From Amycolatopsis mongoliensis (lineage in GTDB: Bacteria > Actinomycetota > Actinomycetes > Mycobacteriales > Pseudonocardiaceae): 64,000 nucleotides of DNA. The number at the start of each line of letters is the position of its first letter. Position 1 is the first letter of the stretch. Positions 22,984 through 56,454 of the stretch are shown here, piece after piece. A program made the position numbers and the translations under genes. The notes beneath the pieces were generated by a model. It did no database searches. It worked only from the letters and a program-made list of their open reading frames with translations, and had not been told where the DNA came from. Location of the stretch: the NCBI RefSeq assembly GCF_030285665.1, contig NZ_CP127295.1, forward strand, positions 372,001-436,000. Direction: 5' to 3'.

Positions 22984-23103
22984 GCAGCCCCCGCCCTCCT
23001 CGGGGGGCGTGCCCTTGTCCAGCGTAACGGGCCCCCCGGACGAAAAGCCGGGAAAGCGGCTGCTGCGGCCCGCTTGTCCACATACGGGCCGCGCTGTGGG
23101 CAA
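22984..23103 (+). repeat. Interspersed element, copy A (paired DnaA-box-like nonamers)
   Basis: About 120 nt. It starts GCAGCCCCCGCCCTCC, has AGCGTAACGG at 23021-23030, TTGTCCACA at 23074-23082 and TGTGGGCAA at 23095-23103 (one mismatch to TGTGGACAA), with the two nonamers facing each other 12 nt apart. Same layout in copies B, C and D. It lies upstream of pyc (-) and downstream of the subtilase gene (-). The remaining 22813-22983 holds the pyc promoter region and a small CCCGC/GCGGG hairpin. Confidence 0.85.
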
Positions 23104-23118
23104 CCCAGCTGCGGCCGT

Positions 23119-24021
23119 TCAGGATCCCGGTGACGCGTAAAGCAGCCGGTTGGCCGTGCCGTCCGGAACGCCCTGCAACGCGTTCGGGGTCGCCGCCTGA
23201 ACAAGCGCTTGGTCCACCTGGCCGGGCGAGGCTTCCGGGTGCTGGGCGCGGTACAGCGCCGCCACTCCCGCCGCGAACGCCGCCGCCATCGACGTGCCCG
23301 ACTCGGGGCCCCCTCCGGTGCCGCCCGCGATCGGGCCCGGGACCTCCACCCCCGGCGCGTACAGGTCGACGTCCTGGCCGAAGTTCGACGCCTTGTCCGG
23401 GTGGTCCTGGACGTCCGTGGCGCCGACCGTCAGCGCCTCCGGCACCCGGCCCGGGGAGAACCCGCTCGCGTCCGCCGTCTCGCTGCCCGCCGGGACCGCG
23501 ACCGGGACCACCGCCGCCAGGCGCTTCACCGCCGCGTCGAGCTGGTCGTTCGGGACGCCGCCGATGCCGAGGACGGCGACCGCCGGCTGCTGGGCGTTCT
23601 GCGCGACCCAGTCGAGGCCCGCGATGATCTGGTCGGTGGCGCCGCCGCCGTCCTTGTCGAGCACCCGCACCGGCACGATCTGCGCGCCCTTCGCGACGCC
23701 GTAGTCCTTGCCCGCGGCGATCCCGGCGAGGCGCGTGCCGTGGCCGTTGGTGTCGGACGTGTCGGAGCCGCCGGCCAGGAAGTCCCGCCCGGGCGCGACC
23801 CGGCCCTCGAAGTCGGGGTGCTTCGCGTCGACGCCGCTGTCGATCACGTAGATCGTGACGCCCGAGGCGTCGTTCGCGTAGCGGTAGGCGTGGTCGAGCC
23901 CGGTGCGCTGGTCGATCCGGTCCAGCCCCCAGCCCGGCGGATCCGGCTGCACCCCGCCGGCGGCGACCGCCGGGGTCTGACCTGCCAGCACGACCGCCAC
24001 TGCCGCGAGAAGCATCCTCAT
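23119..24021 (-). CDS. Secreted S8 (subtilisin-like) serine peptidase, possibly altered
   Basis: 300 residues with a signal peptide (MRMLLAAVAVVLAGQTPAVA) and a bare catalytic domain, no prodomain or C-terminal anchor. Triad seen: Asp61 in VIDSGVD, His94 in NGHGTRLAG, Ser244 in ESGTSMAAAF. The oxyanion-hole Asn of the usual AAGN motif is Ser here (VPAGSET, residue 180), so activity may be low or lost. ATG 24021 gives a good signal peptide; TTG 24057 is an upstream alternative. It follows the caspase-like gene by 37 nt on the same strand, so the two are probably co-transcribed. Confidence 0.85.
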   Translation of the reverse strand: MRMLLAAVAVVLAGQTPAVAAGGVQPDPPGWGLDRIDQRTGLDHAYRYANDASGVTIYVIDSGVDAKHPDFEGRVAPGRDFLAGGSDTSDTNGHGTRLAGIAAGKDYGVAKGAQIVPVRVLDKDGGGATDQIIAGLDWVAQNAQQPAVAVLGIGGVPNDQLDAAVKRLAAVVPVAVPAGSETADASGFSPGRVPEALTVGATDVQDHPDKASNFGQDVDLYAPGVEVPGPIAGGTGGGPESGTSMAAAFAAGVAALYRAQHPEASPGQVDQALVQAATPNALQGVPDGTANRLLYASPGS

Positions 24022-24058
24022 GATCGTCGTGGTACCCCGGCGGTGCCCGGGCGACAAC

Positions 24059-26230
24059 TCAGGACTGTCGCCCGTTCGGCTGATTCCGGCGGACGGCCAG
24101 AACCACGGTGTCGATCGCCAGCAGCAAGACGCCCGACGCGGCGATCGTCAGTCCCGCCACGGTCACGGAGGAATGATCCAGCGCCGCGGCGGCCGTCGGC
24201 GCGAGGACACCCAGCAGCCCGGCGGTCCCCATGCCCAGCACGGCACAGCCCACGGGGCGCGGGCGAAGCACCATGGCGACGACGGGCACGGCCACGGCCA
24301 GCAAGGCGCCGAGCACGAAGTAGGCCGCCGCGCGGCCGGCGTCGCCGGAGTCGTAGGCGCCCAGCTCGCCGAGCTGGAGGAGCCAGCCGACGGCGATCGT
24401 CACGCCCAGGACGATCGCCACCCAGGCCGGCCGGTCGCGCACCCTGCCGATGCCCAGCGCGTGGCTCCGGCGCAGCGCCGCCGGCGCGCACGCCCCCGCG
24501 ACCACCCACGCGAGGTGCGCCAGCAGCTCGAAGGTGAAGCCGGCGTTCAGCTCGGTGCCCGAGCCGTCGGACAGGGTGACCGCCTCACCGAGGAAGCGCA
24601 GCAACCCGAACAGGGCGGCCAGACCGACGCCGAGCAGCAGGGCCGGTCCGGTCCGCGACCTGGTCCGCGGCGCCAGCGTCAGGATCCCGGCGAGCAGCGC
24701 GCAGGCCGCCACGATCCCCGCGTAGAACTCCATACCGGGCCGGTACTCGGCCAGCTTGTATTCGCCGTAGCGGTAGTACAGGCCCAGGCCGATCACCGCG
24801 AAGACCGCGCCGGCGATCGCGGTCACCCCGGCGAACCCGCCGACCGGATCCACCGCACCCGCCCGCGCCCCGGCCGTCGATGCCGGCTGGGGCGTGGATT
24901 TCCCGAGTTCGGGCTCGGGTTCGGCCACAGCCACCGGTTCCGGATCTGTCACCACAGGCTCGGCTTCGGGTTCCGCGGCGACCACGGGCTCGGGCGCCGG
25001 CTCCGGGACCGCCTCGATCTCCACCGCCACCACGACATCGCCGGTCGGCCCGGTCACCACGACCTTCCCCTGGCGCGTTCCCGACTCCCCCGCCGTGACC
25101 GACAGCTCCGCCCCACCGGAAACCTCGGTCACCCGGATCCACGCGTGCGAGGCCTCGAACCGCACCTCCCGCGCCACCGGCGGCCCCGACACCCGCAGCG
25201 AAGCCGAAGCCACCTCGCCGGAGTCTGCCGACAACCGCACCGAAGACGTGTCCACCCGCACCACCGCCACGCCCAGCGCGTCCGACGCCGCCGCCGCGAC
25301 GTGCTGGATGTCCGTGGCCGCCATGACTTTCAGCGCTTCGAACGCCCCCATCGCCACCGGGAGGTTGTCGCTCGAAAGCCGGCGCCGCAGCTCGGCCACC
25401 GCGCCCAGCCGCGTGAACTGGTTCTCCGCCGCGATCGCGCCCGCCAGGTCCGGCGGGATCGGGGACGGCTTGATCCGGCGACGCCTGCTCTTCGCCAGGT
25501 ACAGCTCGCCCTGCATCTCGATGTCGCGGCTCGGGGTCTGCTTCGGGTTGCGCTCGCGGACGCGGTCGAACAGGTACTCGTACAGCTCGCCGAGCGCGAT
25601 CCAGCCGTCCTCGTCGCGGTCCGCCTCACCCGTGCGCAGCCCCTCCACCAGCGCCGACGTGAACACCGACGGCTGCGCGGGCTCCCCCTCGGCCAGCCGC
25701 GCGCCCTCGAAGGCGTACTCGATCGAGTTCGACGCCGTGATGACCGCGCGGCCGCGGCCGCCGCGGAAGCTGTCCAGGACGTTCGCGTCGCCCGACGCCC
25801 GCACCGCCACGCCCTGCCCGAACGCGCCGCCGTAACAGCAGTCCAGCAGCAGGACGACGCTGCGCGAGCGGCTCTGCCGGAGGCACTGCTGCACGAACTG
25901 CGCGGGCACCGCGGTCGACCGCAGCCGGTCGGGCCGGGTGTTGCGCGCGGCGAAGTACAGCCCGCCCGAGTCGTCCTTCAAGCCGTGGCAGGAAAAGTGC
26001 ATCAGGAGGACGTCGTCGGAACGGCCCTCGGCGCAGAGGTCCTCGATCTCCGCCTGCACGACGTGCGCGGTCTCGTTGCGGACCACCTGGACCTCGAAGT
26101 CGCTGATCGCCCGGTCGGACAGCACCTCCGCGAGGGCGTCCGCGTCCGCCGCGGGCGAGCCCAGCCGCTGCAGCCCCGCGTTGTCGTACTCGCCGTTGGC
26201 GACGATCAGCGCCCGCCTCCGCCCGGCCAT
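24059..26230 (-). CDS. Caspase-family (C14) peptidase with C-terminal membrane domain
   Basis: 723 residues. Order: caspase-like domain (1-~230) with His82 in HFSCHG and Cys132 in LDCCYGG as the dyad, a helical region (~250-330), a beta-sandwich-like segment (~335-420), a Glu/Pro-rich linker (~425-480), and about eight hydrophobic segments to the C-terminus. The catalytic domain should face the cytoplasm. Caspase-like proteases in bacteria act in regulated proteolysis and in several abortive-infection systems (known); no partner sensor is visible here apart from the adjacent S8 peptidase. Confidence 0.88.
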   Translation of the reverse strand: MAGRRRALIVANGEYDNAGLQRLGSPAADADALAEVLSDRAISDFEVQVVRNETAHVVQAEIEDLCAEGRSDDVLLMHFSCHGLKDDSGGLYFAARNTRPDRLRSTAVPAQFVQQCLRQSRSRSVVLLLDCCYGGAFGQGVAVRASGDANVLDSFRGGRGRAVITASNSIEYAFEGARLAEGEPAQPSVFTSALVEGLRTGEADRDEDGWIALGELYEYLFDRVRERNPKQTPSRDIEMQGELYLAKSRRRRIKPSPIPPDLAGAIAAENQFTRLGAVAELRRRLSSDNLPVAMGAFEALKVMAATDIQHVAAAASDALGVAVVRVDTSSVRLSADSGEVASASLRVSGPPVAREVRFEASHAWIRVTEVSGGAELSVTAGESGTRQGKVVVTGPTGDVVVAVEIEAVPEPAPEPVVAAEPEAEPVVTDPEPVAVAEPEPELGKSTPQPASTAGARAGAVDPVGGFAGVTAIAGAVFAVIGLGLYYRYGEYKLAEYRPGMEFYAGIVAACALLAGILTLAPRTRSRTGPALLLGVGLAALFGLLRFLGEAVTLSDGSGTELNAGFTFELLAHLAWVVAGACAPAALRRSHALGIGRVRDRPAWVAIVLGVTIAVGWLLQLGELGAYDSGDAGRAAAYFVLGALLAVAVPVVAMVLRPRPVGCAVLGMGTAGLLGVLAPTAAAALDHSSVTVAGLTIAASGVLLLAIDTVVLAVRRNQPNGRQS

Positions 26231-26284
26231 ACCGGTAGGAGACGCCCACCGGGAGCGTTACGGCAAGCAGCCGAACGGGCACAC

Positions 26285-27424
26285 CTAACCGGCCGCCGCC
26301 TGGAAAATCGTTTCCTGCCCTTCGAGGCAGACGACGGCGTCGAACGCGGCCGCCACGTCGACCGCCGGTGACATGTGCGCGTGCCGGATGCTCGACGCCG
26401 CCGGGTGCGCGACCACGCAGGGCGCTCGAGATGCCAGTGCCGCCTCGACGCTGCCTTCCGCGGGCGCCTCCAGGGCCTGCTCGAACATCCGGAACCCCAA
26501 CCGGGCTTCCGGGTCGGGGGCCAGGCCGGTGGTCGTCCCCGCGACGGCGGTGAGCGCGAGCGCGAAGTACTTCTCCCCCAGCTCCGCGGCCAGGTGCGTG
26601 CCCGCGGACGGCGCCGTCATCCCGGGCATCGGCGAGAACGGCACGCGCTGGAGGTGCCCGTTGTGGAGCATCAGGACGATCTTTTCGCCCGGGTGCAGCC
26701 GGCGCAGCAGCCGCACGGTGGCCGCCATGTACGCGTCCCGCGACGAACTCTGCGGCTCGGGCGCGCGGCCCGCCATCAGCGCGGCCAGCTCCCGCAGGTA
26801 CAGGTCGATCCGCAGCGCGCCCTCGGCGTGGTGCGCGGCCACGTCGCCGTAGCCGAGCGCCGCCACGTGTCCGTTGAGGACGGTCAGCGCCGCCGTCGCC
26901 GCATCGCGCGCTTCAGGAATCATTTCCTGGTACCGCCCGGGCGCGACCGCACTGCTCACCGACGCGTACGGCTCGCACGCCGCCACCGCCGTGTCCACAA
27001 GGGACACGTTGGCCGGGTCCACGCGCAAGACGTGCTCGCGGAGGGCCTGCAGCGCGGGCACCGGCGACCCCGCCGAACTCGGCACGTCCAGACCGGCGAA
27101 CCGGACACCGCGACCGCGCAGCCAGGTCAGCATCGAGTGCACCTCGGCCGAATCGCCGAGGCCGAAGGTGAAGCCGTCCCGCGCGATGTCGGCGACGTCA
27201 CCCGGGCCGCCCTGAAGCCACGTGTCGACCAGGTGCCCTTCGGGAAACCCGCCTTCGAAGCCCAGGACCGTGAACCCGCGTTCGGAGACGAGGTGCCGGA
27301 GGAGACGGTCGCGCAGCGCGCCGAACTCACGGATGTGATGGTTGTTCTCGCCGATCGCGACGACCTCGGCGTCGCCGATCAGGGCGGCGATGGACGTGAC
27401 GTCGATGGACCCTGGCTCTGGCAT
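26285..27424 (-). CDS. Erythromycin esterase-family protein
   Basis: 379 residues, cytoplasmic. Seen: VVAIGENNHHIREF near residue 25 (the GExxH active-site motif of EreA/EreB-type enzymes), FEGGFPEG, and VLMLHNGHLQRVPF containing the conserved HNxH. Family members hydrolyse macrolide lactones or act on related esters; the substrate here is not known. ATG 27424 was chosen because it starts the conserved domain and lies 31 nt from the divergent TetR start; the longer open frame has no support. Probably controlled by that TetR regulator. Confidence 0.83.
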   Translation of the reverse strand: MPEPGSIDVTSIAALIGDAEVVAIGENNHHIREFGALRDRLLRHLVSERGFTVLGFEGGFPEGHLVDTWLQGGPGDVADIARDGFTFGLGDSAEVHSMLTWLRGRGVRFAGLDVPSSAGSPVPALQALREHVLRVDPANVSLVDTAVAACEPYASVSSAVAPGRYQEMIPEARDAATAALTVLNGHVAALGYGDVAAHHAEGALRIDLYLRELAALMAGRAPEPQSSSRDAYMAATVRLLRRLHPGEKIVLMLHNGHLQRVPFSPMPGMTAPSAGTHLAAELGEKYFALALTAVAGTTTGLAPDPEARLGFRMFEQALEAPAEGSVEAALASRAPCVVAHPAASSIRHAHMSPAVDVAAAFDAVVCLEGQETIFQAAAG

Positions 27425-27455
27425 ACTGGGCACACTAACGCAACAGGAGTAGCAG

Positions 27456-28091
27456 TTGGCAACCGAGATTTCCGGCACACGGCGGCCGGGCGGGCGCACC
27501 GAGCGGACGCGCCTCGCCGCCCTGAACGCCACCCTCGAGCTGCTCGGCGAACGCGGGTACGCGGAGCTGACCGTCGAGGCGGTCGCCGAACGCTCCGGCG
27601 TGCACAAGACGACGCTGTACCGCCGGTGGGAGTCCGCCGAAGGCCTGGTCGCGGCGGCCCTGCTGATGGGGACCGAGCAGGAGTGGACGGCCCCGGACAC
27701 CGGCTCGCTCGAAGGCGACCTGCGCGGGATCAACCTGGAGCTGGTGCACTACTTCACCTCGCCGGGCGAGCGCGAGCTCCCGACGGCGTCGATCTCCGCG
27801 GCCTTCCTGTCGGACCGCGCGGCGGACGCGCTGCGCGAGTTCTACGTCGACCGCCACGCGCGCTCGGCGGCGGTCGTCGACCGGGCCGTCGAACGCGGCG
27901 AGGTCCCGCCCGGCACCGACGCCGTCGAAGTCGTGCGCGTGGCGTGCGGGCCGGTCTTCTACCGCCTGTTCGTCTCCCGCGAGGGCGTGACGCCGGAAGA
28001 CGCCGATCTCGCCGCGAAAGCCGCCGCGGCCGCCGCGAAAGCGGGCGTGTTCACGGCAGGGAGCGCCGGTACCGCCGTTCCTCCAGCGTGA
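27456..28091 (+). CDS. TetR-family transcriptional regulator
   Basis: 211 residues. Seen: N-terminal helix-turn-helix with ATLELLGERGYAELTVEA and SGVHKTTLYRRW (recognition helix), then a helical ligand-binding domain. TTG 27456 is supported by AGGAG about 8 nt upstream. Divergent from the erythromycin-esterase-like gene with only 31 nt between the starts, the usual layout for a local repressor. Its 3' end overlaps the convergent acetyltransferase gene by 41 nt. Confidence 0.88.
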   Translation: MATEISGTRRPGGRTERTRLAALNATLELLGERGYAELTVEAVAERSGVHKTTLYRRWESAEGLVAAALLMGTEQEWTAPDTGSLEGDLRGINLELVHYFTSPGERELPTASISAAFLSDRAADALREFYVDRHARSAAVVDRAVERGEVPPGTDAVEVVRVACGPVFYRLFVSREGVTPEDADLAAKAAAAAAKAGVFTAGSAGTAVPPA

Positions 28092-28518
28092 CCCGGCCCT
28101 CGTCGATCGTCTCGGTCTGGGTGGCGCCGTCGTCGACCCAGCCCTGCCGGACGTAGAAGGCCTTCGCGCGCTCGTTCGTCGACAGCACCCACAGGACGAC
28201 ACTGTCCCCGGAAAGCTCTTCGACGACCCGGTCGTGCAACGCCCGGCCGAGGCCCCGCCCCCAGTACTCCGGCAGCAGGTACAGCGCGTAGAGCCGGCCG
28301 TCCCCGTACGCGGCGAACCCCACGATGACGCCGTCTTCCTCGGCGACCAGCACCGGGCCGCCGTCGCCGATGCGCCGGGCCCACGACGCCGCGCGCGGCT
28401 CCGCCGAGAGCCGGGCGAGGAAGTCGGCCGGGATCAGCCCCGCGTACGCGGCCTGCCACGAAGCCACGTGGACCTCGCCGATCGCCGCGGCGTCGGCGAC
28501 CGTGGCCGGGCGGATCAA
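28051..28518 (-). CDS. GNAT-family N-acetyltransferase
   Basis: 155 residues covering one GNAT domain: IRPATVADAAAIGEVHVASW at the start and the acetyl-CoA motif LPEYWGRGLGRAL near residue 85. TTG 28518 overlaps the recG stop (TTGA), so it is translationally coupled to recG. The substrate is not predictable. Confidence 0.85.
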   Translation of the reverse strand: MIRPATVADAAAIGEVHVASWQAAYAGLIPADFLARLSAEPRAASWARRIGDGGPVLVAEEDGVIVGFAAYGDGRLYALYLLPEYWGRGLGRALHDRVVEELSGDSVVLWVLSTNERAKAFYVRQGWVDDGATQTETIDEGRVTLEERRYRRSLP

Positions 28519-30668
28519 CTCTTCTCCAGGTATTCCGCGCGCTCGACGTCGACGACGTCGGCGACCATCTGTGCCAGCCCGCGGTACTTCTTCAGGTCCG
28601 GGTCCTGCTCGACGATCTCCTGCGCGCTCGCCCGCGACGCGGCGATCACGTCCTCGTCGCGCAGCAGCGACAGCAGCTTCAGCCCGGACCGCTTCCCGGA
28701 CTGCGCGGCGCCGAGGATGTCGCCTTCGCGGCGCAGCTCGAGGTCGAGGCGTGACAGCTCGAAGCCGTCGGTCGTCGACTCGACCGCCGCCAGCCGTTCG
28801 CGCGTCGCCGTGCCGTCGAGGGCCTCGGTGACCAGCAGGCAGACCCCCGGCACGCTGCCCCGGCCGACGCGGCCGCGCAGCTGGTGCAGCTGGCTGACGC
28901 CGAACCGGTCGGCGTCCATGATCACCATCGCGGTCGCGTTCGGGACGTTCACGCCGACCTCGATCACCGTCGTGGCCACGAGGACGTCGAGCTGCGCCGC
29001 GGAGAACGCGCGCATCACGGCGTCCTTCTCGTCGGGCGGCATCCGGCCGTGCAGCACGCCGATCTTCAGCCCCTGCAACGCGCCGTGCTCCAGGTCGGGC
29101 GCAACGTCGAGGACCGCGAGCGGCGGCCGCTTGTCGCTCTTGTCCGACGGCGGCTCGTCGCCGATCCGCGGGCACACGACGTACCCCTGGTGCCCCTTGC
29201 CGACCTCTTCGCGGACCCGCTGCCAGATCCGGTCGAACCAGGCGGGTTTTTCGGCGACCGGCACGACCGTGGTGCTGATCGGCGACCGCCCGACCGGCAT
29301 CTCGCGCAGCGCGGAGACCTCCAGGTCGCCGTACACGGTCATCGCGACCGTGCGCGGGATCGGCGTCGCGGTCATGACCAGCACGTGCGGGCTGGTGTCC
29401 CCGGCGCCGCGGGTGCGCAGCGCGTCCCGCTGCTCGACGCCGAACCGGTGCTGCTCGTCGACGACCGCGAGGCCGAGGTCGGCGAACTCGACGTGGTCCT
29501 GGATCAGCGCGTGCGTGCCGACGACGATGCCCGCCTCGCCGCTGACGATCTCCAGCAGCGCCTTCTTGCGCTCCTTCGCACCCATCGACCCGGTCAGCAG
29601 CGTCACGCGGGTGGCGTTCTCGGCGGCACCCAGCTCGCCCGCCTGGCCGAGGTCGCCGAGCATCTCCCGCAGCGACCGCGCGTGCTGGGCGGCGAGGACC
29701 TCGGTCGGCGCCAGCATCGCGGTCTGCCGGCCGTTGTCGACGACCTGCAGCATCGCCCGCAGCGCGACGATCGTCTTGCCGGAGCCGACCTCGCCCTGCA
29801 GCAGCCGGTTCATCGGGTGCTCGGAGGCGAGGTCCGCGGCGATCTCGTCGCCGATCCCCCGCTGGCCCGCGGTCAGGTCGAAGGGCAGCCGCTTGTCGAA
29901 GGCGTCCATCAGGCCCCCGCTGACGTGCGGGTTCGCCTTCGCCGGCCGCGAGATGGCCGAGTGGCGCCGCTGCGCGAAGATCAGCTGGACGGCCATGGCC
30001 TCGTCCCACTTGAGCCGCTTCTTCGAAGCTTCCAGGTGTGCCCAGTTGGCCGGGCGGTGGATGCCGTGCAGCGCGGTGTCCAGGTCGGACAGGCGGTGCA
30101 GCCGCCGCAGCTCCGCCGGCATCGGGTCCTCGTCGACCTCGAGGACGTCGAGGACCTGGCGCACGCACTTGGCGATCGACCACGTCGGCATGCCCTGCGC
30201 CGCCGGGTAGACCGGGATGATCGCGGCGAGGAAGTCGTCCATCGCCTCGGCCTCGCGGTCGGCCTCGAACAGCTCGTACTCGGGGTTGGTCAGCTGCAGG
30301 GTGTCGCGGAAGGCGGACACCTTGCCGGCGAACAGGCCGGTCTTGCCGGGGACCAGGTCCTTCTCGCGCCAGGCCTGGTTGAAGAAGGCGCAGGTGAGCC
30401 GGCGCTTCCCGTCGGTGATCACCATGTCGAGGATGGTCCCGTTGCGGGACTTCATCCGCCGCTTGCTCACCTTTTCCACGCGCGCCAGCACGGTGGCGTG
30501 CTCGCCGAGCTCGAGGCCCGCGATGTCGGTGAGCTCGCCGCGCTCGGCGTAGCGGCGCGGGTAGTGGCGCAGCAGGTCGCTGACCGTCTCGATGTCCAAC
30601 GCCGTGGCGAGCGCCTTCGCCGTCTTGGCGCCCAGCAGCAGTGGCAGCTTGTCGCGCAGTCCGGCCAT
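28515..30668 (-). CDS. recG: ATP-dependent DNA helicase RecG
   Basis: 717 residues, cytoplasmic; it remodels stalled forks and branched DNA. Order: N-terminal wedge/OB region (~1-220, with ELTDIAGLELGEHATVLARV), helicase with Walker A LLQGEVGSGKTIVAL (~305-320), DEQHRFGVEQR (motif II), MTATPIPRT, and the C-terminal domain with QLRGRVGRG. ATG 30668 is 3 nt after the stop of the DAK2 gene, with a coupled acetyltransferase behind. Orthologous position to Rv2973c of M. tuberculosis (memory). Confidence 0.96.
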   Translation of the reverse strand: MAGLRDKLPLLLGAKTAKALATALDIETVSDLLRHYPRRYAERGELTDIAGLELGEHATVLARVEKVSKRRMKSRNGTILDMVITDGKRRLTCAFFNQAWREKDLVPGKTGLFAGKVSAFRDTLQLTNPEYELFEADREAEAMDDFLAAIIPVYPAAQGMPTWSIAKCVRQVLDVLEVDEDPMPAELRRLHRLSDLDTALHGIHRPANWAHLEASKKRLKWDEAMAVQLIFAQRRHSAISRPAKANPHVSGGLMDAFDKRLPFDLTAGQRGIGDEIAADLASEHPMNRLLQGEVGSGKTIVALRAMLQVVDNGRQTAMLAPTEVLAAQHARSLREMLGDLGQAGELGAAENATRVTLLTGSMGAKERKKALLEIVSGEAGIVVGTHALIQDHVEFADLGLAVVDEQHRFGVEQRDALRTRGAGDTSPHVLVMTATPIPRTVAMTVYGDLEVSALREMPVGRSPISTTVVPVAEKPAWFDRIWQRVREEVGKGHQGYVVCPRIGDEPPSDKSDKRPPLAVLDVAPDLEHGALQGLKIGVLHGRMPPDEKDAVMRAFSAAQLDVLVATTVIEVGVNVPNATAMVIMDADRFGVSQLHQLRGRVGRGSVPGVCLLVTEALDGTATRERLAAVESTTDGFELSRLDLELRREGDILGAAQSGKRSGLKLLSLLRDEDVIAASRASAQEIVEQDPDLKKYRGLAQMVADVVDVERAEYLEKS

Positions 30669-30671
30669 CGG

Positions 30672-32249: not shown

Positions 32250-32382
32250 CCCGTAACCTCCTGACCGGTCCGAGGCAGCGTATCGACCCGGTGCGTCAGG
32301 CCGGGAAGCCACTGGTTACTATGGTCGAGTTGCCCAGTGCATCTGGGCTCATTTCTATGACCCAGATCCAAAGGAGTTCGAC

Positions 32383-32622: not shown

Positions 32623-32635
32623 CATGCCCGCACCC

Positions 32636-32683
32636 GGTCGTGAGTGTTTAGGGCGGTTCTAACCGCCCTAAACACTCACGACC
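32636..32683. terminator. 23-bp perfect hairpin (TCGTGAGTG family)
   Basis: 32636-32658 pairs without mismatch with 32661-32683 (23 bp, loop CT), beginning GGTCGTGAGTGTTTAGGG. It lies between the rpmB terminator and the 3' end of the convergent hydrolase gene (stop at 32686-32688). Very similar in sequence to the hairpin at 18617-18660. Confidence 0.85.
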
Positions 32684-32685
32684 AC

Positions 32686-39553: not shown

Positions 39554-39717
39554 GGTGAGCCACCGTACCCGGTGACCTCGGCGAACAGCCGAGCCCCGTG
39601 CGCCGGGCGGACCCCCGCGGGCGCCGAGCGCAACCTGTGCGGCCCCCGTCACGTCCGGTACATCGAGGCACTGCTGGGCCCGGCCACCGAGGTCACGCCA
39701 CCACCCCGCGGCCGGCC

Positions 39718-39837
39718 AGGGCCCGCCCTCCCCTCGGGGCCCCCGCCGGATCCAGCGTATCGGCGACGCCCGACGCAAAGTCGGGAAAACCCCCGCGCGC
39801 TACCTCGTTGTCCACATCACGGCCGGGCTGTGGACAA
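39718..39837 (+). repeat. Interspersed element, copy B (paired DnaA-box-like nonamers)
   Basis: About 120 nt beginning AGGGCCCGCCCTCCCC. AGCGTATCGG is at 39754-39763, TTGTCCACA at 39808-39816 and TGTGGACAA at 39829-39837; both nonamers are perfect, face each other and are 12 nt apart. It lies upstream of ddl in plus orientation. Confidence 0.88.
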
Positions 39838-39896: not shown

Positions 39897-40104
39897 GCCC
39901 CAGCGACCCCCCGGCGCCCCAGCGACCCCCGGCGCCCCAGCGACCCAGCGGCCCAGCGACCCAATGTGGCGTTCGGTGCGTCCAGCGCACCGAACGCCAC
40001 ATTGGGTGCGTCCAGCGCAACCAACGCCACATTGGGATTCTCGCAGCGGTCCTGGCGGCCGGAGCCCGGTCGGGCGCGCCCGGCGCAACCAATGGCACCT
40101 CGGG
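39897..40104. repeat. Tandem GC-rich repeat followed by CCAATGTGGCG hairpin cluster
   Basis: 39897-39960 is a tandem repeat of a ~17-nt unit (GCCCCAGCGACCCCCGG). It is followed by a perfect 21-bp hairpin: 39960-39980 pairs with 39986-40006, beginning CCCAATGTGGCGTTCGG. A second right arm lies at 40016-40036, and a degenerate third at about 40083-40104 that carries a similar flank (GCAGCGGTCC and following). The whole gap 39554-40229 has no gene. Confidence 0.85.
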
Positions 40105-41680: not shown

Positions 41681-42328
41681 ATGCTCTCCTCCACGCCCCG
41701 CACCACGCTCGGCCGCATGAAGCACCGGGCCGTGACCGACCGCTCGGTGCTGTACGCCGTCCTGGACGAGGGCCTGATCTGCCACCTCGGCATCGTCCGC
41801 GACGGCGCGCCCCTGGTCCTGCCGACCGGCTACGGCCGCGACGGCGACACGCTCTACCTGCACGGCTCCACCGGCGCGTCGAGCCTGCGCACGGCTTCGC
41901 AGGACCTCGACGTCTGCGTCACGGTGACGCTCCTGGACGGCATCGTCTACTCGCGGTCGGTCAACAACCACTCGATGAACTACCGCAGCGCGGTCATCCT
42001 CGGCAAAGCGGCGACGGTCACCGACCGCGAGGCGAAGATGCACGGCCTGAAGGTGCTGACGGACCACCTCGCCCCGGGCTCGTGGGAGCACGCGCGCGAG
42101 GTCAACGCGAAGGAGTTCGCGGCGGTGAGCGTGCTCGCGCTCGACCTCGCCGAGGCGTCGGTGAAGATGCGCGCCGAGGGGCCGGACGACGAGCCGGAGG
42201 ACCTCGACGCGGACAACGCCTGGGCGGGCGTGCTCCCGATCCGGACGGTCTTCGGCGCGCCCGAGCCGTCGACGGACCTCTCCCCCGGCTGGCAGGTCCC
42301 GGCGCACGTCAGCGGTCGTGAGTGGTAA
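41681..42328 (+). CDS. Pyridoxamine 5'-phosphate oxidase-family protein
   Basis: 215 residues with a split-barrel flavin/F420-binding fold. Seen: MLSSTPRTTLGRMKHRAVTD, then VLDEGLICHLGIVRDGAPLV, LYLHGSTGASSLRT and NYRSAVILGKA, typical of the PNPOx-related group often found next to MocR genes. ATG 41681 is chosen as the domain start; the open frame begins at 41627. Its TAA lies within the following hairpin. Cofactor and substrate are not certain. Confidence 0.87.
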   Translation: MLSSTPRTTLGRMKHRAVTDRSVLYAVLDEGLICHLGIVRDGAPLVLPTGYGRDGDTLYLHGSTGASSLRTASQDLDVCVTVTLLDGIVYSRSVNNHSMNYRSAVILGKAATVTDREAKMHGLKVLTDHLAPGSWEHAREVNAKEFAAVSVLALDLAEASVKMRAEGPDDEPEDLDADNAWAGVLPIRTVFGAPEPSTDLSPGWQVPAHVSGREW

Positions 42329-42360
42329 TCAGGGTTCTAACCCGAATTACCACTCACGAC
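42315..42360. terminator. 22-bp hairpin between convergent genes (TCGTGAGTG family)
   Basis: 42315-42336 pairs with 42339-42360 at 20 of 22 positions with a 2-nt loop. Starts GTCGTGAGTGGTAATC. It contains the TAA of the PNPOx-family gene and, on the minus strand, the TGA of the histidine kinase gene. Confidence 0.82.
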
Positions 42361-47196: not shown

Positions 47197-47269
47197 AAAG
47201 CTGTAAATCGGTTCGCCCCCGCTCGGTGTCTCGGCCAGACTCGGGACCACCCGTCTGCCGAGGAGAACC

Positions 47270-48471: not shown

Positions 48472-48484
48472 ATAGGGTGACGGC

Positions 48485-49468: not shown

Positions 49469-49480
49469 GCAGGATTCCCA

Positions 49481-49562
49481 GCGCCCCAATGTGGCGTTCG
49501 GTGCGTCAGACGCACCCAATGTGGCGTTCGGTGCGTCTGACGCAACCAACGCCACATTGGGG
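49481..49562. repeat. CCAATGTGGCG hairpin cluster (two left arms, one right arm)
   Basis: Left arms at about 49485-49505 and 49515-49535 share CCCAATGTGGCGTTCGG; one right arm at 49541-49562 pairs with them. Same family as 39960-40036 but with the arm order left-left-right instead of left-right-right. It lies 3' of the asparaginase gene and before the convergent cysteine dioxygenase gene, so it can act as terminator. Confidence 0.85.
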
Positions 49563-49593
49563 CGCTCGGGTCGCGGGCCGCCGGACGCGCAGG

Positions 49594-50073: not shown

Positions 50074-50122
50074 GAGGGTCCTCACGGAAGAGAAGGGGTG
50101 TCGAACTGGGCCGGGGCGGGGT

Positions 50123-50149
50123 TCACCGACAACAGCGACACGCGCACAT
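50123..50149 (-). CDS. Cysteine-rich leader peptide (uORF) of the dioxygenase gene
   Basis: An 8-codon ORF encoding MCACRCCR, with four Cys in eight residues, ending 49 nt before the dioxygenase start on the same strand. Poly-Cys leader ORFs in mycobacteria attenuate sulfur genes in response to cysteine (known from the literature, memory). No clear ribosome binding site precedes its ATG, so it may be leaderless. Confidence 0.72.
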   Translation of the reverse strand: MCACRCCR

Positions 50150-50273
50150 GACGGCGCCGAGGCCGTGGCGGCCCCGCAGCTCGGTCATCTCGTGCGCGAA
50201 CATGACGACCAGAGTTCCGTACCGCCCCGGCCCGGTCAAGCCGCTCCCAGCATCCGGGCGGTAGGTCACACCC

Positions 50274-51290
50274 TCAGGACCACTCGTGCTTCTGCGAGCG
50301 GCCCAGCAGCTCCGCGCCCGCCTGCCGCGGGTCGACGCCCTCGTGGCACACGCGGTGCATCGCGTCGGTGATCGGCATGTCGACACCGAGGCTCCTCGCC
50401 AGCGCCCGGATCGACGAGCACGACATGACGCCCTCGGCAACCTGCCCGCCGGCCGCCGCCTGTGCCTGCTCGAGGGTCTCGCCGCGACCGAGGCGCTCGC
50501 CGAACGTCCGGTTGCGCGAAAGCGGCGACGAGCACGTCGCGACCAGGTCGCCGACCCCGGCGAGCCCGGCGAACGTCAGCGGGTCGGCGCCCAGTTTCGC
50601 GCCGAGGCGGGCCATCTCGGCCAGGCCGCGCGTGATGAGCGTCGCCATCGTGTTGGTGCCGAGCCCGAGGCCCGCGGCCATCCCGGTGCTGAGCGCGATG
50701 ACGTTCTTGCACGCGCCGCCGAGCTCGCAGCCGACGACGTCGGTGTTCGTGTACGGGCGGAAGTAGGAGTTGGCGCAGGCGCGCTGGATCGCGACGGCGC
50801 GTTCGTGGTCGGCGCAGGCCAGCACCGATGCGGACGGCTGCCCGGCGGCGATCTCCTTGGCCAGGTTCGGCCCGGTGACGACGACGACCTCGCCGGGGTC
50901 GATCCCGACGATCTCGCCGATCACCTCGCTCATCCGCTTGAGCGTGCCGAGCTCGACGCCCTTGGCGAGGCTGACGAGGATCGCGTCGGGCGGCAGCAGG
51001 TCGCGCCACGACGTCAGGTTCGCGCGCAGGCTCTGGCTGGGCACCGCGAGCACGACGGCCTGGGCGCCCTCGAGGGCCTTGGCCGGATCGCTGGTGGCGG
51101 TGATGTTCTCCGGCAGGCCGACGCCGGGCAGGTAGGCGCTGTTGACGTGCCGCTCGCGGATGTCCTCGGCGACCTGCTCGCGGCGCGCCCACATCGTGAC
51201 GTCGCGGCCGGCGTCGCCGAGCACCTTCGCGAAGGCGGTGCCCCACGAGCCGGCCCCGAGCACGGTAACCCGCTGGACGTCGGCGCGCAT
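50274..51290 (-). CDS. gpsA: NAD(P)-dependent glycerol-3-phosphate dehydrogenase
   Basis: 338 residues; reduces dihydroxyacetone phosphate to sn-glycerol-3-phosphate for phospholipids. Seen: [17 protein letters not shown] (nucleotide-binding GxGxxG), [10 protein letters not shown], and [18 protein letters not shown] with the catalytic Lys. Its ATG shares one base with the stop of the plsC-like gene (TGATG), so the two lipid-synthesis genes are coupled. Confidence 0.96.
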
Positions 51291-51994
51291 CAGGTGGGGT
51301 CCCCCGGCTTCGCCGACGGCGGTTCCTCGTGGCGGATCTCGCCGAGCAGGCGGGTGACCTCGTCCATCATGACCTTGGTGACCTCCCGCAGCTTCGACGC
51401 GCTGCGCGCGCTGCCTTCGCGGTAGATCGAGAGGTCGAGCGGGTCGCCGACGGAGTGGGTGATCGTCTTGCGCGGGAACGGCGTGAACTTCTTGCCGTAG
51501 CCGTCGAAGATCAGGCTGGTGCCCCAGCGCGCGATCGGGATCACGGGGACGTCGTTCTGCAGCGCGAGCCGGGCGGCGCCGGTGAAGGACTCCTTGGGCC
51601 AGCCGGCCGGGTCCTTGGTGATGGTGCCTTCGGGGTAGATCACGACGATCTTGCCCTCCTGCAGCGCCTGGTGCGCGGCCTTGAGGCTGTCCCCGGCGGC
51701 GGCCGAGCCGCGCGAAACCGGGATCTGCCCGGACCCGACGAAGATCTTCCCGAAGACCGGGGTCCGGGTGAGGCTCTCCTTGCCGAGGAAGCGTGGCACG
51801 CGCTTCGCCCGGTGCACGAACACGGCGTCGACCACGGGATCGAGGTGCGAGACGTGGTTCAGGACGAGCAGGGCGGGCCCTTCCCGCGGAATCTTCTCGT
51901 CCCCGACGTAGACCCGCCGCGCGATCGCGGTGAGCGGGTAGAACACGGCGGCGGCCAACCCCACCCAGAAGCCGCCCTTCTCACGCCGGGCCAC
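51290..51994 (-). CDS. 1-acyl-sn-glycerol-3-phosphate acyltransferase (PlsC-like)
   Basis: 234 residues. Seen: acyltransferase motif [12 protein letters not shown] (HxxxxD), [12 protein letters not shown], and [12 protein letters not shown]. Uses glycerol-3-phosphate-derived lysophosphatidate, so it follows GpsA in the same pathway. GTG 51994 is chosen because GGAGGAGGAG lies directly upstream; the in-frame GTG at 52009 is inside that site. Confidence 0.9.
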
Positions 51995-52139
51995 GATCTC
52001 CTCCTCCACCTGTCACGTCCGCCCCAGATCCTGCCGCGCCGGGGTAAGGGCAGTCCAGGGAGGGTGCCTTCGGCGAGGGTGAGGCGGTGATCCGGGCCGC
52101 GCGGGCACCTCGCCCGGGCACCTCGCCCGGGCGGCGACC

Positions 52140-52258
52140 GCAGCCCACCCTCCCTGGGGGCCACCCCGTCTCGAGCGTATCGGCGCCGCCCGACGACGAC
52201 CCGCCCCGAAAGCGCCCTCACCCTCGACTTGTCCACAACGCCCGTCGCCTGTGGACAA
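52140..52258 (+). repeat. Interspersed element, copy C (paired DnaA-box-like nonamers)
   Basis: About 119 nt beginning GCAGCCCACCCTCCCTGG. AGCGTATCGG at 52174-52183, TTGTCCACA at 52229-52237 and TGTGGACAA at 52250-52258, both perfect and 12 nt apart. It lies in the 314-nt divergent gap between the plsC-like gene (-) and cofC (+), which holds no other recognisable feature. Confidence 0.88.
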
Positions 52259-52308
52259 CTCGTGCCTCCCGCCGACACCCACCCGCCGTTTCGGGTAAAG
52301 ATGGACGG

Positions 52309-52941
52309 GTGGACGTGGACCTGGTCGTGCCGATGAAACACCCCCGCGACGGCAAGTCGCGGCTGCGTGGTGCCGTCGAGGCCGAGCACCACCCCGGCCT
52401 CGTCCTCGCCCTCGCCGCCGACACGCTCGCCGCCGTGACCTCGAGTGCGCACGTCCGGCGCGTGCTGCTGGTCGCCGCCGATCCCGATGCCGTCGCCGAG
52501 CTGGGTGAGCTCGGGGTCGAGATCGTCGCCGAACCCGCCGAGAGGACCCTCAACGCCGCCTTCCGCCACGGTGAATCCCTGCTCCGGGCCGACGACCCCC
52601 GAGCCGTCGTCGGCGCCCTCCAAGCCGATCTCCCGGCCCTGCGCGCCGGCGACCTGGCCGACGCCCTCGCCGAAGCGGCGGGAGCCCGGGCCTTCGTCGC
52701 CGACCGCCAAGGCACCGGCACCACCCTCCTGCTGTCCGCGCCCGGCGCCGCCCTCGACCCGCACTTCGGCCTGGGCTCGGCGCGAAAACACGCCGCCTCC
52801 GGGGCGGTCGCGCTCCAGCGGCAGCTCCTCAGCCTGCGCAGCGATGTCGACACCCCGGACGACCTCGCCCACGTGCGCGGCCTGGGTGTCGGGAAACACA
52901 CCGCCGCCCGCCTCGGCGAACCCTGCGCGGCGCCCCGCTGA
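52309..52941 (+). CDS. cofC: 2-phospho-L-lactate / phosphoenolpyruvate guanylyltransferase
   Basis: 210 residues; nucleotidyltransferase of coenzyme F420 synthesis (CofC/FbiD). Seen: VVPMKHPRDGKSRL at the start (nucleotide-binding, with the conserved K.GKSRL), VVGALQADLPALR, and GTGTTLLLSAPG. GTG 52309 starts the domain. Same position relative to gpsA and ppk as Rv2983 of M. tuberculosis (memory). F420 could serve luciferase-like or PNPOx-like enzymes in this genome. Confidence 0.92.
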   Translation: MDVDLVVPMKHPRDGKSRLRGAVEAEHHPGLVLALAADTLAAVTSSAHVRRVLLVAADPDAVAELGELGVEIVAEPAERTLNAAFRHGESLLRADDPRAVVGALQADLPALRAGDLADALAEAAGARAFVADRQGTGTTLLLSAPGAALDPHFGLGSARKHAASGAVALQRQLLSLRSDVDTPDDLAHVRGLGVGKHTAARLGEPCAAPR

Positions 52942-52996
52942 GCTGTTCACCTGACCTTCACCGCGGCCTGCGCAATTCAGCGTGGCTTAGTGAAGA

Positions 52997-55378
52997 ATGG
53001 AGCCCGTGAGCACAGAAGACGGCGGCACGCCCGCACCGCGGAGGCGACGGAACCCGGCGAACGGATCTTCGGAGACGGGGAAGAAGTCCACTCCCCGGGC
53101 GAGCACCACGGCCAAGAAGGTCCCGTCGAAGTCCACCGCGCGCGACACCGCCGCCCGTGCCACCGCCGGCAAGGCGAGAACCCGCAAGACCACCGCGGCG
53201 GCGGCCACCCCGGCGTCGACCCGGCGCCGCAGCTCCGCGCACGGCAACCCGCGCGGCGCCGAAGAGTTCCGGGCGGTCCCGTCGGCACCGCCTGCCGTCA
53301 CCGCCGCCCCGACCGCCACCGAGACGCTGCCGGACGACCGGTACTTCAACCGGGAGCTCTCCTGGCAGGACTTCAACGCCCGCGTGCTGGCGCTGGCCGA
53401 GGACGAGTCGCAGCCGCTGCTCGAACGCACGAAGTTCCTCGCGATCTTCGCGTCCAATCTGGACGAGTTCTACATGGTCCGCGTCGCCGGCCTGAAGCGC
53501 CGCGACGAGACCGGCCTCCTGGTGCGCAGCGCGGACGGGCTCACCCCGCGCGAACAGCTCGACTACATCGCCAAGCGCAACCAGGACCTGGTCGAGCGGC
53601 AGACCGGTGCGTTCGAGAAGCACCTGCGCCCGCAGCTGGCCGAGCACGACATCCTGATCGTCGGCTGGGCCGACCTGTCCGGCGCCGACCAGCTCCGGCT
53701 GTCCAGCTACTTCTCCGAGCAGATCTTCCCGGTGCTGACGCCCCTGGCCGTCGACCCGGCGCACCCGTTCCCGTACATCTCGGGCCTTTCGCTGAACCTC
53801 GCGGTCACGGTGCGCGACCCGGAGGGCGGCACCGAGCGCTTCGCCCGGGTGAAGGTGCCGAGCAACGTGCAGCGCCTCATGCGCGTCGAGACCGAGCGCA
53901 CCAGCCGCACGGCGACGTTCCTGCCCCTGGAAGAACTCATCTCCGCGCACCTCGGTGAGCTGTTCACCGGCATGGACGTCACCGAGCACCACGTCTTCCG
54001 CGTCACCCGCAACGCCGACTTCGAGGTCGACGAGGACCGCGACGAAGACCTCCTGCAGGCCCTCGAACGCGAGCTGGCGCAGCGCCGGTTCGGCCCGCCG
54101 GTGCGCCTCGAGGTCGCGCAGGACATGAGCGAGCACATGCTCGAGCTGCTGCTGCGCGAGCTGGACGTCGACCCGGCCGACGTCGTCGAGGTGCCCGGCC
54201 TGCTCGACCTGACCTGCCTGCACCAGCTGTCCGGAGTGGACCGCAAGGAGCTGAAGGACCGGCCGTTCGTGCCGGCGACGCACCCGGCGTTCGGCGAGCG
54301 CGAGACGCCGAAGAGCGTCTTCGCGACGCTGCGCGAGGGCGACGTGCTCGTGCACCACCCGTACGACTCGTTCTCCACGAGCGTGCAGCGGTTCATCGAG
54401 CAGGCGGCGGCCGATTCGAAGGTCCTCGCGATCAAGCAGACGCTGTACCGGACGTCGGGCGACTCCCCGATCGTCGACGCGCTGATCGACGCCGCGGAGG
54501 CGGGCAAGCAGGTCGTCGCGCTGGTCGAGATCAAGGCACGGTTCGACGAGCAGGCGAACATCACCTGGGCGCGGACGCTGGAGCGCGCCGGCGTCCACGT
54601 CGTGTACGGGCTGGTCGGGCTGAAGACGCACTGCAAGGTGTCGATGATCGTGCGCCAGGAGGGCTCGACCATCCGCCGCTACTGCCACATCGGCACCGGC
54701 AACTACAACCCGAAGACCGCGCGGCTCTACGAGGACATCGGCCTGTTCACCGCCGACCCGAGCATCGGCGCGGACGTCACCGACCTGTTCAACGTGCTCA
54801 CCGGGTACTCGCGGCAGGACACCTACCGGACGATCCTGACGTCGCCGCACGGCATCCGCCGGGGCATCGTGCGCGCGATCGGCGAGGAGATCGAGCTGGC
54901 GCGGGCCGGGCAGGACGCCGGCATCCGGATCAAGTGCAACTCGCTGGTCGACGAGCAGGTCATCGACGCGCTCTACCACGCGTCGCAGGCCGGGGTGCCG
55001 GTCGAGATCGTGGTGCGCGGGATCTGCACGCTCAAGCCCGGCGTCGAAGGGCTTTCCGAGAACATCCACGTCCGGTCGATCCTCGGCCGGTTCCTGGAGC
55101 ACTCGCGGATCTTCAACTTCCGTGCCGGCGGCACGCACTGGATCGGCAGCGCGGACATGATGCACCGGAACCTGGACCGGCGGATCGAGGCGCTGGTGCG
55201 GGTCAAGGACCCGAAGCTGACCGCGCAGCTCGACGACATCTTCGATTCGGCGCTGGACCCGGCGACGCGGTGCTGGGTGCTGACCGCGAGCGGCGAGTGG
55301 TCGCCGTTCCCGGCGGACGGCTCGCGGGTGCGCGACCACCAGCTGGAGCTGGCGAAGCTGCACGGGGCCGCCGGATGA
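52997..55378 (+). CDS. ppk: Polyphosphate kinase 1 with basic N-terminal extension
   Basis: 793 residues; makes polyphosphate from ATP. Residues ~110-793 are the normal PPK1: [37 protein letters not shown], and two HKD/PLD-like domains with [12 protein letters not shown] and [15 protein letters not shown]. The first ~105 residues are an added Lys/Ala/Thr/Arg-rich low-complexity tail ([20 protein letters not shown]), like the HU tail in this window. ATG 52997 or GTG 53006. Coupled to mutT1 by ATGA. Confidence 0.95.
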
Positions 55379-56328
55379 CCCAGGAGGTACGGGCGGCCGG
55401 CGCGGTGCTGTGGCGCGGCTGCGGCAAGGCGACCGAAGTCGCCCTGGTGCACCGCCCGCGGTACGACGACTGGTCGTTGCCCAAGGGGAAGCTCGACCCC
55501 GGCGAGACGACCGCCGAAGCCGCCGTACGGGAAGTGAAGGAAGAAACCGGGTTCGACGCGGTCCTGGGCCGGTACCTGGCCCGGACGGCGTACCCGGTGC
55601 CCACGCGCAACGGCTCCGGGACGGTCCCGAAGACGGTCGACTACTTCAGCGCCGAAGCCGTGTCCGGAGTGTTCGCCGCGAACGACGAGGTCGACGAGCT
55701 GCGCTGGCTCGACCCGACGGCCGCGGAGAAGCTGCTGACCCGGCCGGAGGACGTGCGGGTGCTGCGCGCTTTCTGCGAGGTGCCGGCAGGCCTGACGACG
55801 CTGGTGCTGGTGCGGCACGCGAAGGCGGGCAAGCGGGACGAGTGGACCGGCGACGACGACCTCCGGCCGCTGTCGGACGCGGGTCTGCGGCAGGCGTCGG
55901 CGTTGCGGCGGGTGCTGGCGCTGTACGGGCCGGACCGGGTGCTGTCGGCGCCGCGGCTGCGGTGCGTGCAGACGGTGCAAAGGGTCGCCGACGACCTCGG
56001 GATCGAGGTGCGGCACGAGCCGCTGCTGTCGGAAGAGGGGTACTGGCCGGACCCGGTGCTGGGCGTCGCGCGGCTGCTGGCGATCGCGGGCGACGGCGGG
56101 ACACCGGTGGTGTGCAGCCAGGGCGGGGTGATCCCGGACCTGGTCAGCGCACTGGCCGACCGCGACGGCGTGGACCTTCCGGCCGCCCGCGGCGGCGTGG
56201 TCCCGAGCAAGAAGGGGTCGTTCTGGGTTCTGTCGTTCCGCGCGCCGACGACCGAGGACGGCCCGGTGCTCCTGGCGGCCGACTACCACCCGAGCGCCCT
56301 GCCGACGCCCTCCCCGACCCGCTCCTGA
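55375..56328 (+). CDS. mutT1: MutT1-type Nudix hydrolase with C-terminal phosphatase domain
   Basis: 317 residues. N-terminal Nudix domain (~1-140) with [20 protein letters not shown] and the Nudix box ending [10 protein letters not shown]-terminal histidine phosphatase domain with [15 protein letters not shown]. This is the two-domain MutT1 of mycobacteria (Rv2985, memory), which cleans 8-oxo-GTP/dGTP and diadenosine polyphosphates. ATG overlaps the ppk stop. Confidence 0.93.
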
Positions 56329-56333
56329 GCCGG

Positions 56334-56454
56334 CTATCCCCACGCCGGCCGTGATGTGGACAAGCGGCCTCGGCCGGGCCTTTTCCGGGCTGTTTCGTCG
56401 GAGGCCCCCGATACGCTGGACAAGGGCACGCCCCCCAGGGAGGGCGGGGGCTGC
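56334..56454 (-). repeat. Interspersed element, copy D (inverted orientation)
   Basis: Reverse-oriented copy just after the mutT1 stop. On the plus strand: a degenerate nonamer CTATCCCCA at 56334-56342, TGTGGACAA at 56355-56363 (12-nt gap), CCGATACGCT at 56408-56417, and GGGAGGGCGGGGGCTGC to 56454. The spacing between landmarks equals that of copies A-C. Confidence 0.85.

What the first reader, a model, noticed from the sequence alone, without database searches (positions are those of the whole stretch)
22984..56454. Interspersed ~120-nt element with a facing pair of DnaA-box-like nonamers, four copies
Copies at 22984-23103, 39718-39837, 52140-52258 and (inverted) 56334-56454 share a GC-rich head (GCCCGCCCTCCCTGGGG type), an AGCGTATCGG block, and 53-55 nt later TTGTCCACA, a constant 12-nt gap and TGTGGACAA. 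TTGTCCACA is the actinobacterial DnaA-box consensus. Fixed spacing with variable flanks implies selection on the nonamer pair. The element could titrate DnaA, act as a chromosome-organising site, or be a small non-autonomous mobile element. All four lie only in gaps at gene starts or ends.
Basis: partly seen in the sequence, partly recalled or inferred. Interest (0 to 1): 0.75.

Follow-up and report, generated by a model that had tools for sequence, protein, structure and literature searches.

The report
Repeated DnaA-box promoters for G-rich RNA
Scattered short DNA elements each carry two likely binding sites for the protein that starts chromosome copying, placed at fixed distances from a bacterial promoter that points into a G-rich stretch, which suggests that the copying machinery switches on a set of small transcripts.

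Summary
The four copies are real and belong to a genome-wide family: 24 strong copies and 1 weak one in this 10.81 Mb, probably Amycolatopsis, genome, with matches in 67 of 80 genomes of the genus (own included) and in 27 genomes of 14 other genera of the family. On the other strand it is two DnaA-type nonamers, a -10 hexamer TANNNT, then a conserved G-rich segment. Copies were found with a model that stops 21 nt upstream of the -10. All 54 copies examined still have a nonamer pair ending 36-37 or 47-49 nt before the -10, one helical turn apart. In other genera the nonamers lie near 38 and 58 nt but point the same way, which suits DnaA better than a dimer on a palindrome. The same nonamer matrix is about 60-fold enriched at this genome's own origin region. 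Amycolatopsis copies also carry a PafBC-like -26 motif. Best reading: DnaA-phased promoters of a short G-rich RNA, on the origin side of the chromosome. Common descent of the spacing is not fully excluded; DnaA binding, transcription and the RNA's use are untested.

The parts
23074..23103 (-). c1: facing pair of DnaA-type nonamers, gap 12 (1 mismatch)
   Evidence: L143
23035..23042 (-). c1: PafBC-like -26 motif CGTCCGGG
   Evidence: L143
23021..23026 (-). c1: -10 hexamer TACGCT, 47 nt from the pair
22983..23020 (-). c1: G-rich leader; R1 match 22983-23047
39808..39837 (-). c2: facing pair, exact, gap 12
39768..39775 (-). c2: -26 motif CGTCGGGC
   Evidence: L149
39754..39759 (-). c2: -10 hexamer TACGCT, 48 nt from the pair
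39715..39753 (-). c2: G-rich leader; R1 match 39715-39780
52229..52258 (-). c3: facing pair, exact, gap 12; kept in 24 of 27 genomes at this site (own included)
52188..52195 (-). c3: -26 motif CGTCGGGC
   Evidence: L156
52174..52179 (-). c3: -10 hexamer TACGCT, 49 nt from the pair
52137..52173 (-). c3: G-rich leader; R1 match 52137-52200
56334..56363 (+). c4: facing pair, gap 12, 3 mismatches in the outer box
   Evidence: L136
56396..56403 (+). c4: -26 motif CGTCGGAG
56412..56417 (+). c4: -10 hexamer TACGCT, 48 nt from the pair
56418..56455 (+). c4: G-rich leader; R1 match 56391-56455

Best explanation
Each copy is a small transcription unit. DnaA sits on two nonamers about 21 bp apart, two helical turns, so on one face of the DNA. 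From there it acts on sigma-A RNA polymerase at a promoter that has a -10 hexamer TANNNT and no obvious -35. In Amycolatopsis a PafBC-like -26 motif (T/C-GTCGG) takes the place of the -35, so there the unit should also answer to DNA damage. Transcription starts a few nt after the -10 and runs into a conserved G-rich segment (about GGGGnCGCCCCCCnGGGAnGGGyGGGGGCTG), giving a short G-rich RNA or leader. About 25 such units on the origin side of the chromosome would turn DnaA level and replication stress into local transcription; they also add strong DnaA sites. Shown: the parts, their phasing, conservation and distribution. Inferred: DnaA binding, activation rather than repression, PafBC dependence, existence and use of the RNA.
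For: Model R1 covers -26 motif, -10 and leader only, yet 54 of 54 copies examined (25 own, 29 from other genomes of the genus) have a best upstream match to the facing pair with at most 4 mismatches of 18, gap 12 in 50 and 11 in 4, ending 36-37 nt (10 copies) or 47-49 nt (44) before the -10; in 1080 random 140-nt stretches the best match had 5 mismatches in 3 and 6 or more in the rest. In 44 copies from 15 genomes of other genera, boxes with at most 1 mismatch lie in direct orientation at 36-40 nt (38 occurrences) and 53-59 nt (24); control density 19 in 199,147 positions. Orthologues at c1-c4: 30 promoters scored, all at 47-49 nt (the script looked at 30-55 nt). Box matrix: 15 hits of 8 bits or more in 841 nt of the own origin region against 24 in 80,040 nt. 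In the -10 the outer T, A and T stay while the middle three change, also among c2 orthologues. RecA-NDp-type sites are real in this genome: 104 with at most 1 mismatch against 5 backwards, in front of genes with UvrB, DNA polymerase III alpha, gyrase B and beta-clamp domains.
Against: No binding or expression data. Linkers between boxes and promoter are more alike than random stretches (mean aligned score 1.9 against -3.2; identity 0.38-0.43 against 0.31-0.34 upstream of the pair), so part of the fixed spacing may be common descent. At c3 14 of 27 genomes keep the pair without a recognised promoter, so the pair has some use of its own. E. coli DnaA prefers boxes 2-3 bp apart (PMC11317965, passages), not 12. 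In 54 copies two (L150, L155) are direct pairs and in two (L165, L173) the outer box is poor. Leader: no covariation and no Rfam match (only a sub-threshold hit away from the element). 39 RecA-NDp promoters examined mostly lack the pair (best 5-9 mismatches, as in the control).
Confidence: 0.6

Rival explanations
1. DnaA titration or reload sites (datA- or DnaA-dense-region-like): the pairs bind DnaA near the origin, and promoter and leader are incidental.
For: Pair kept without promoter in 14 of 27 genomes at c3; 88 listed copies in 7 genomes all within 0.64 of the way from dnaA to the antipode; boxes dense near the origin help titration in E. coli (PMC12371093, abstract).
Against: Does not explain a conserved -10, leader and one-turn phasing. 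The origin bias has no core-genome control.
Confidence: 0.15
2. A REP- or MITE-like repeat that spreads and decays; its parts are fixed by common descent, not by use.
For: Copies polymorphic at c1 (absent in 14 of 20 genomes), c2 (6 of 18) and c4 (23 of 27); 0-41 copies per genome; linkers weakly alike; in 11 of 25 own copies a co-directional gene ends 66-91 nt before the -10, beside the outer box.
Against: Boxes, -10 and leader stay while linkers drift; two orientations of boxes occupy the same positions in different genera; the c3 left box has 0 of 216 departures; no terminal repeats or target duplications seen.
Confidence: 0.16
3. The pair is the operator of another regulator, not DnaA.
For: A 30-bp palindrome is typical of dimeric regulators; no binding data.
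Against: Direct boxes at the same positions in other genera; matrix enriched at the own origin region; TTGTCCACA is the high-affinity DnaA box of M. tuberculosis and S. coelicolor (PMC4285127, passages).
Confidence: 0.06
4. The pair is a hairpin terminator behind gene ends.
For: 6 of 67 distinct sites have at least 6 contiguous complementary bases outside the boxes; several pairs directly follow stop codons.
Against: Over all 67 sites outer complementarity exceeds the shuffled expectation only at the 2nd and 3rd position; c3 lies between divergent genes; box letters are fixed rather than co-varying.
Confidence: 0.03

Closest known systems
DnaA-regulated promoters (PMC8203912, passages; uvrB with LexA: PMC6015884, abstract)
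   Same: DnaA boxes beside a sigma-70-type promoter; link to repair genes
   Different: Single genes there; here a multicopy near-uniform unit with boxes at fixed helical positions and a G-rich leader
RecA-NDp / PafBC promoters (PMC8223512, PMC11804915, PMC6789036, PMC2897130: passages)
   Same: -26 motif and TANNNT at the same spacing; type abundant in this genome
   Different: Typical members drive repair genes and lack the box pair; most copies here have a weaker -26 motif; other genera lack it as a group
datA, DARS and DnaA-dense regions of E. coli (PMC12371093, abstract and outline)
   Same: Chromosomal DnaA-box sites with origin bias
   Different: Dispersed short units with a promoter and leader; no IHF or Fis sites looked for
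E. coli double DnaA boxes (PMC11317965, passages)
   Same: Pairs of boxes with strict spacing
   Different: 2-3 bp there; 12 bp facing or 10-12 bp direct here
REP/MITE-type intergenic repeats (recalled)
   Same: Short, intergenic, multicopy, polymorphic by site
   Different: No defined ends found; inner modules conserved like a working promoter

Membership tests
Actinobacterial DnaA box | Match to TTGTCCACA and to the boxes of the own origin | tested here: met
   Matrix hits 15 in 841 nt at the origin region against 24 in 80,040 nt; table value in PMC4285127
Actinobacterial DnaA box | Bound by DnaA | not testable with these tools
   needs gel shift or ChIP-seq
DnaA-regulated promoter | DnaA box at a position able to contact RNA polymerase | tested here: met
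   36-37 or 47-49 nt before the -10 in 54 of 54; direct boxes near 38 and 58 in other genera
DnaA-regulated promoter | Transcription changes with DnaA | not testable with these tools
   needs reporter or RNA-seq under DnaA depletion
RecA-NDp / PafBC promoter | TTGTCRGTG-N8-TANNNT (letters recalled) | tested here: inconclusive
   Right spacing in most Amycolatopsis copies, but only 2 of 25 own copies (L031, L010 loci) are among the listed sites with at most 1 mismatch; GTCGG columns 0.82-0.98 in 60 genus copies, not conserved in 44 others
RecA-NDp / PafBC promoter | Induction by DNA damage through PafBC | not testable with these tools
   needs RNA-seq in a pafBC deletion
datA / DARS | Box cluster that lowers or raises DnaA-ATP | not testable with these tools
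   only box pairs seen; function needs biochemistry
MITE | Terminal inverted repeats and target-site duplication | tested here: inconclusive
   none seen at c1 (aligned with 3 empty sites) or c4 (by eye), but junctions are blurred by deletions
Known structured RNA (Rfam 15) | Match over gathering score | tested here: not met
   0 matches in the window; in 5 loci only one sub-threshold hit elsewhere in L359
Structured RNA | Covarying base pairs in the leader | tested here: not met
   0 of 4 consensus pairs with change on both sides in 79 sequences; closing pair complementary in 13 of 95 against 15.6 shuffled

The most novel reading that the evidence does not exclude
The units are DnaA- and damage-licensed R-loop or G-quadruplex sites. 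At least four runs of three or more G lie in the first 42 nt after the -10 in 50 of 60 genus copies and 39 of 44 others, against 3 of 312 control stretches. RNA made there could stay on the DNA beside bound DnaA and recharge DnaA or start auxiliary replication after damage, much as mitochondrial CSB II or inducible stable DNA replication do (comparison recalled).
Probability: 0.1. Interest if true: 0.93.

Novelty: new variant of a known kind. Interest (0 to 1): 0.73.

Why it matters
DnaA is known to regulate single genes. Dozens of similar promoters with DnaA boxes on a one-turn ladder, kept across genera, with a PafBC-like motif added in one genus, would be a transcription network of the replication initiator built from a repeated element. 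Nature offers many spacing and orientation variants for testing how DnaA touches RNA polymerase, and there may be an unknown RNA. Even as titration sites or as a repeat, it is a clear case of selection on spaced DnaA-box pairs.

Tried and rejected
Promoter of the next gene: neighbours are unrelated, and in 16 of 25 own copies the next gene reads against the promoter, 1 unresolved. At c1 and c2 the neighbour's own start region stays alike when the unit is absent (by eye). I recalled DUF222/HNH genes as owners of such promoters; none of the neighbouring proteins printed looked like one (by eye, no family search on them).

Hairpin or terminator: weak. Structured leader: no covariation; the structure inside R1 is therefore not meaningful and R1 served as a sequence profile. 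Strand bias relative to replication: 14 of 24 co-directional, none claimed. Recent copying between c1 and c4: they are alike, but five other own pairs score as high or higher, and the c1 flank keeps traces of a longer region seen in G043, G064 and G056, so loss elsewhere is as likely (by eye).

Named relatives: the ppk region of 80 named or MAG loci places the window beside Amycolatopsis, but none of the 80 holds a facing pair with at most 2 mismatches. R1 on 32 of these 80 gave two weak hits only (E 0.003 and 0.057). So the elements have not been seen here in a named genome.

Literature: ten searches listed no paper that describes such elements; for most papers only the listing was seen, and the library is open-access only. 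The RecA-NDp letters are recalled; none of the passages seen prints them.

Caveats. Loci outside this genome are best-scoring or hand-picked listed matches (29 + 6 in the genus, 44 in 15 genomes of 9 other genera), not all. One search uses all 24 strong copies for G000 but only listed ones (6-13) for the six other genomes, and for G014 pair sites rather than R1 matches. The 80-kb background is 40 own loci around RecA-NDp sites. The gap called the origin region lies downstream of dnaA; its other neighbour was not checked to be dnaN. One search allowed gaps of 12 or 13 and a -10 at 30-55 nt only; one c1 orthologue (G064) is scored 'pair only' although a -10-like site is visible. One search took 6 of 12 c2 orthologues because of a distance limit. 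The matrix left out L150 and L155. L358, from another genus, does carry a GTCGG motif. Gene calls are from my own simple caller.
Full report
Observation. The four copies exist with small departures: c2 and c3 have exact facing pairs, c1 has 1 mismatch, c4 has 3; AGCGTATCGG is exact in 3 of 4. In the 10,811,244-bp single-contig genome the facing pair with a 12-nt gap occurs at 31 places with up to 3 mismatches, against 2 for the pattern read backwards. Exact facing pairs with gaps of 0-30 nt number 8: six with gap 12, two with gap 13. The organism is probably an Amycolatopsis: the closest named ppk loci are of that genus; the genome itself is unnamed.

What it is. Twelve nt upstream of TANNNT ends a T/C-GTC followed by GG-like letters, as in the RecA-NDp/PafBC promoter type (letters recalled). 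That type is frequent here: 104 sites with at most 1 mismatch against 5 backwards. Of the genes behind such sites, I tested five proteins with Pfam: UvrB, DNA polymerase III alpha, gyrase B and beta-clamp domains, and a KaiC/RadA-like ATPase. Model R1 was built on -26 motif, -10 and head only (66 positions, 22 copies). It finds 24 strong and 1 weak copy in this genome, matches in 67 of 80 genomes of the genus with 0-41 each, and in 27 genomes of 14 other genera of the family.

Phasing. R1 begins about 21 nt upstream of the -10 and so does not include the boxes. Of 54 copies examined (25 own, 29 from other genomes of the genus) all have a best upstream match to the facing pair with at most 4 mismatches of 18; gap 12 in 50 and 11 in 4; distance from pair to -10 of 36-37 in 10 copies and 47-49 in 44. 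In 1080 random 140-nt stretches the best match had 5 mismatches in 3 and 6 or more in the rest. By inspection two of the 54 (L150, L155) are direct pairs and two (L165, L173) have a poor outer box. Linkers drift (identity 0.38-0.43 against 0.31-0.34 upstream of the pair) but are more alike than random stretches (aligned score 1.9 against -3.2), so descent explains part of the spacing. At c1-c4, 30 promoters scored in orthologues all stay at 47-49 nt although one-base length changes occur.

Other genera. In 44 copies from 15 genomes of 9 other genera the boxes are direct repeats: boxes with at most 1 mismatch end 36-40 nt before the -10 in 38 occurrences and 53-59 nt in 24; the opposite orientation occurs once. 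Control density is 19 in 199,147 positions (sequences). As a group they lack the -26 motif, with L358 as an exception. The two direct-type copies of this genome also lack it. So boxes occupy rungs near 37, 47.5, 58 and 68.5 nt, one helical turn apart, and their orientation is free. A protein that binds single nonamers, such as DnaA, fits this better than a dimer on a palindrome.

DnaA. A matrix from the element boxes hits the gap downstream of dnaA 15 times in 841 nt at 8 bits or more, against 24 times in 80,040 nt of other own loci. An exact TTGTCCACA lies about 110 nt upstream of the called dnaA start. TTGTCCACA is listed as the high-affinity box of M. tuberculosis and S. coelicolor (PMC4285127, passages).

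Taxon spread of the pair. With at most 1 mismatch the pair occurs 3-31 times in each of 17 genomes of the genus in a family sample of 249; 45 of the other 232 genomes have it, mostly 1-3 times, one 13 times; the backward control is 0 in every listed row.

History. c3: 24 of 27 genomes with a readable site (own included) keep the pair, 10 with and 14 without a recognised promoter; G075 and the two more distant G010 and G068 lack it. Over 24 orthologues the left box departs in 0 of 216 cells, the right box in 8 of 216, the spacer in 50 of 288, the flanks in 140 and 178 of 480. c1 is absent in 14 of 20, c2 in 6 of 18 and c4 in 23 of 27 genomes, often with a clean short gap. Several loci show tandem GGGCTGTG-type arrays behind the leader (by eye).

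Distribution. dnaA lies at 2.375-2.376 Mb. In 7 genomes 88 copies lie within 0.64 of the way from dnaA to the antipode; 4 of 25 perfect RecA-NDp sites of this genome lie beyond two thirds. Lists are partial outside G000, and the core genome is also expected on the origin side (recalled), so this is not proof of function. There is no strand bias (14 of 24 co-directional). In 11 of 25 own copies a co-directional gene ends 66-91 nt before the -10, beside the outer box.

A protein gene with the same layout. A YgjP-like metallopeptidase gene (PF01863) has a perfect RecA-NDp site with an exact facing pair whose end lies 31 nt before the -26 motif, i.e. 47 nt before the -10, here (L003) and in G029 (L296). 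In another genus one pair lies between two divergent RecA-NDp-like sites (L224). Most of 39 RecA-NDp promoters examined lack a pair; two (L323, L349) have single boxes at 48 and 37 nt.

Interpretation. Fixed boxes, fixed phase, drifting linker, variable -10 centre and conserved leader are most simply explained by a DnaA-phased promoter of a short G-rich RNA or leader, tied to DNA damage in Amycolatopsis through a PafBC-like -26 motif (PafBC is activated by ssDNA and its PafB part reads the -26 motif: PMC11804915, passages). Titration and repeat-element readings each explain part and may hold at the same time. DnaA acts on repair genes together with LexA in E. coli (PMC6015884, abstract) and as activator or repressor elsewhere (PMC8203912, passages). 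Box pairs 2-3 bp apart in E. coli (PMC11317965, passages) are a real difference. A search for DnaA with PafBC listed 7 papers, none with that subject in its title or abstract start (listing only).

Limits. No binding, expression or structure data; no covariation in the leader; loci from other genomes are selected matches; no core-genome control; no named genome with the element seen.

Noticed in passing
L311, L312, L322, L323, L336, L349, L350, L222, L223 (own genome): RecA-NDp-type promoters followed by a shorter leader of the kind TANNNTGGAnnnCGGGGGC, mostly without a co-directional gene close behind; L323 and L349 carry one DnaA-type box at 48 and 37 nt, L222 a back-to-back palindrome. Possibly a sister family.
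   Followed up: partly
L195, L196, L205, L208 (c3 orthologues), G006 at c2, L034 (own genome): Tandem arrays of a GGGCTGTG-like unit directly behind the G-rich leader.
   Followed up: no
G088 (genus g10): A 6.0 Mb genome outside the genus with 13 facing pairs (at most 1 mismatch), the only other genome of the family sample with more than 3.
   Followed up: no
window 18612-18660, 32633-32681, 42311-42359: Interspersed palindromes of the type TCGTGAGTG...CACTCACGA, three copies.
   Followed up: no
window 39952-40043, 49477-49568: Interspersed repeats CCCAATGTGGCGTTCGGTGCGTC, each with inverted parts; the same kind lies beside many copies in related genomes.
   Followed up: no
c1 site in G043, G064 and G056: A small open reading frame between the unit and pyc; only its end seems left in this genome (by eye).
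   Followed up: no
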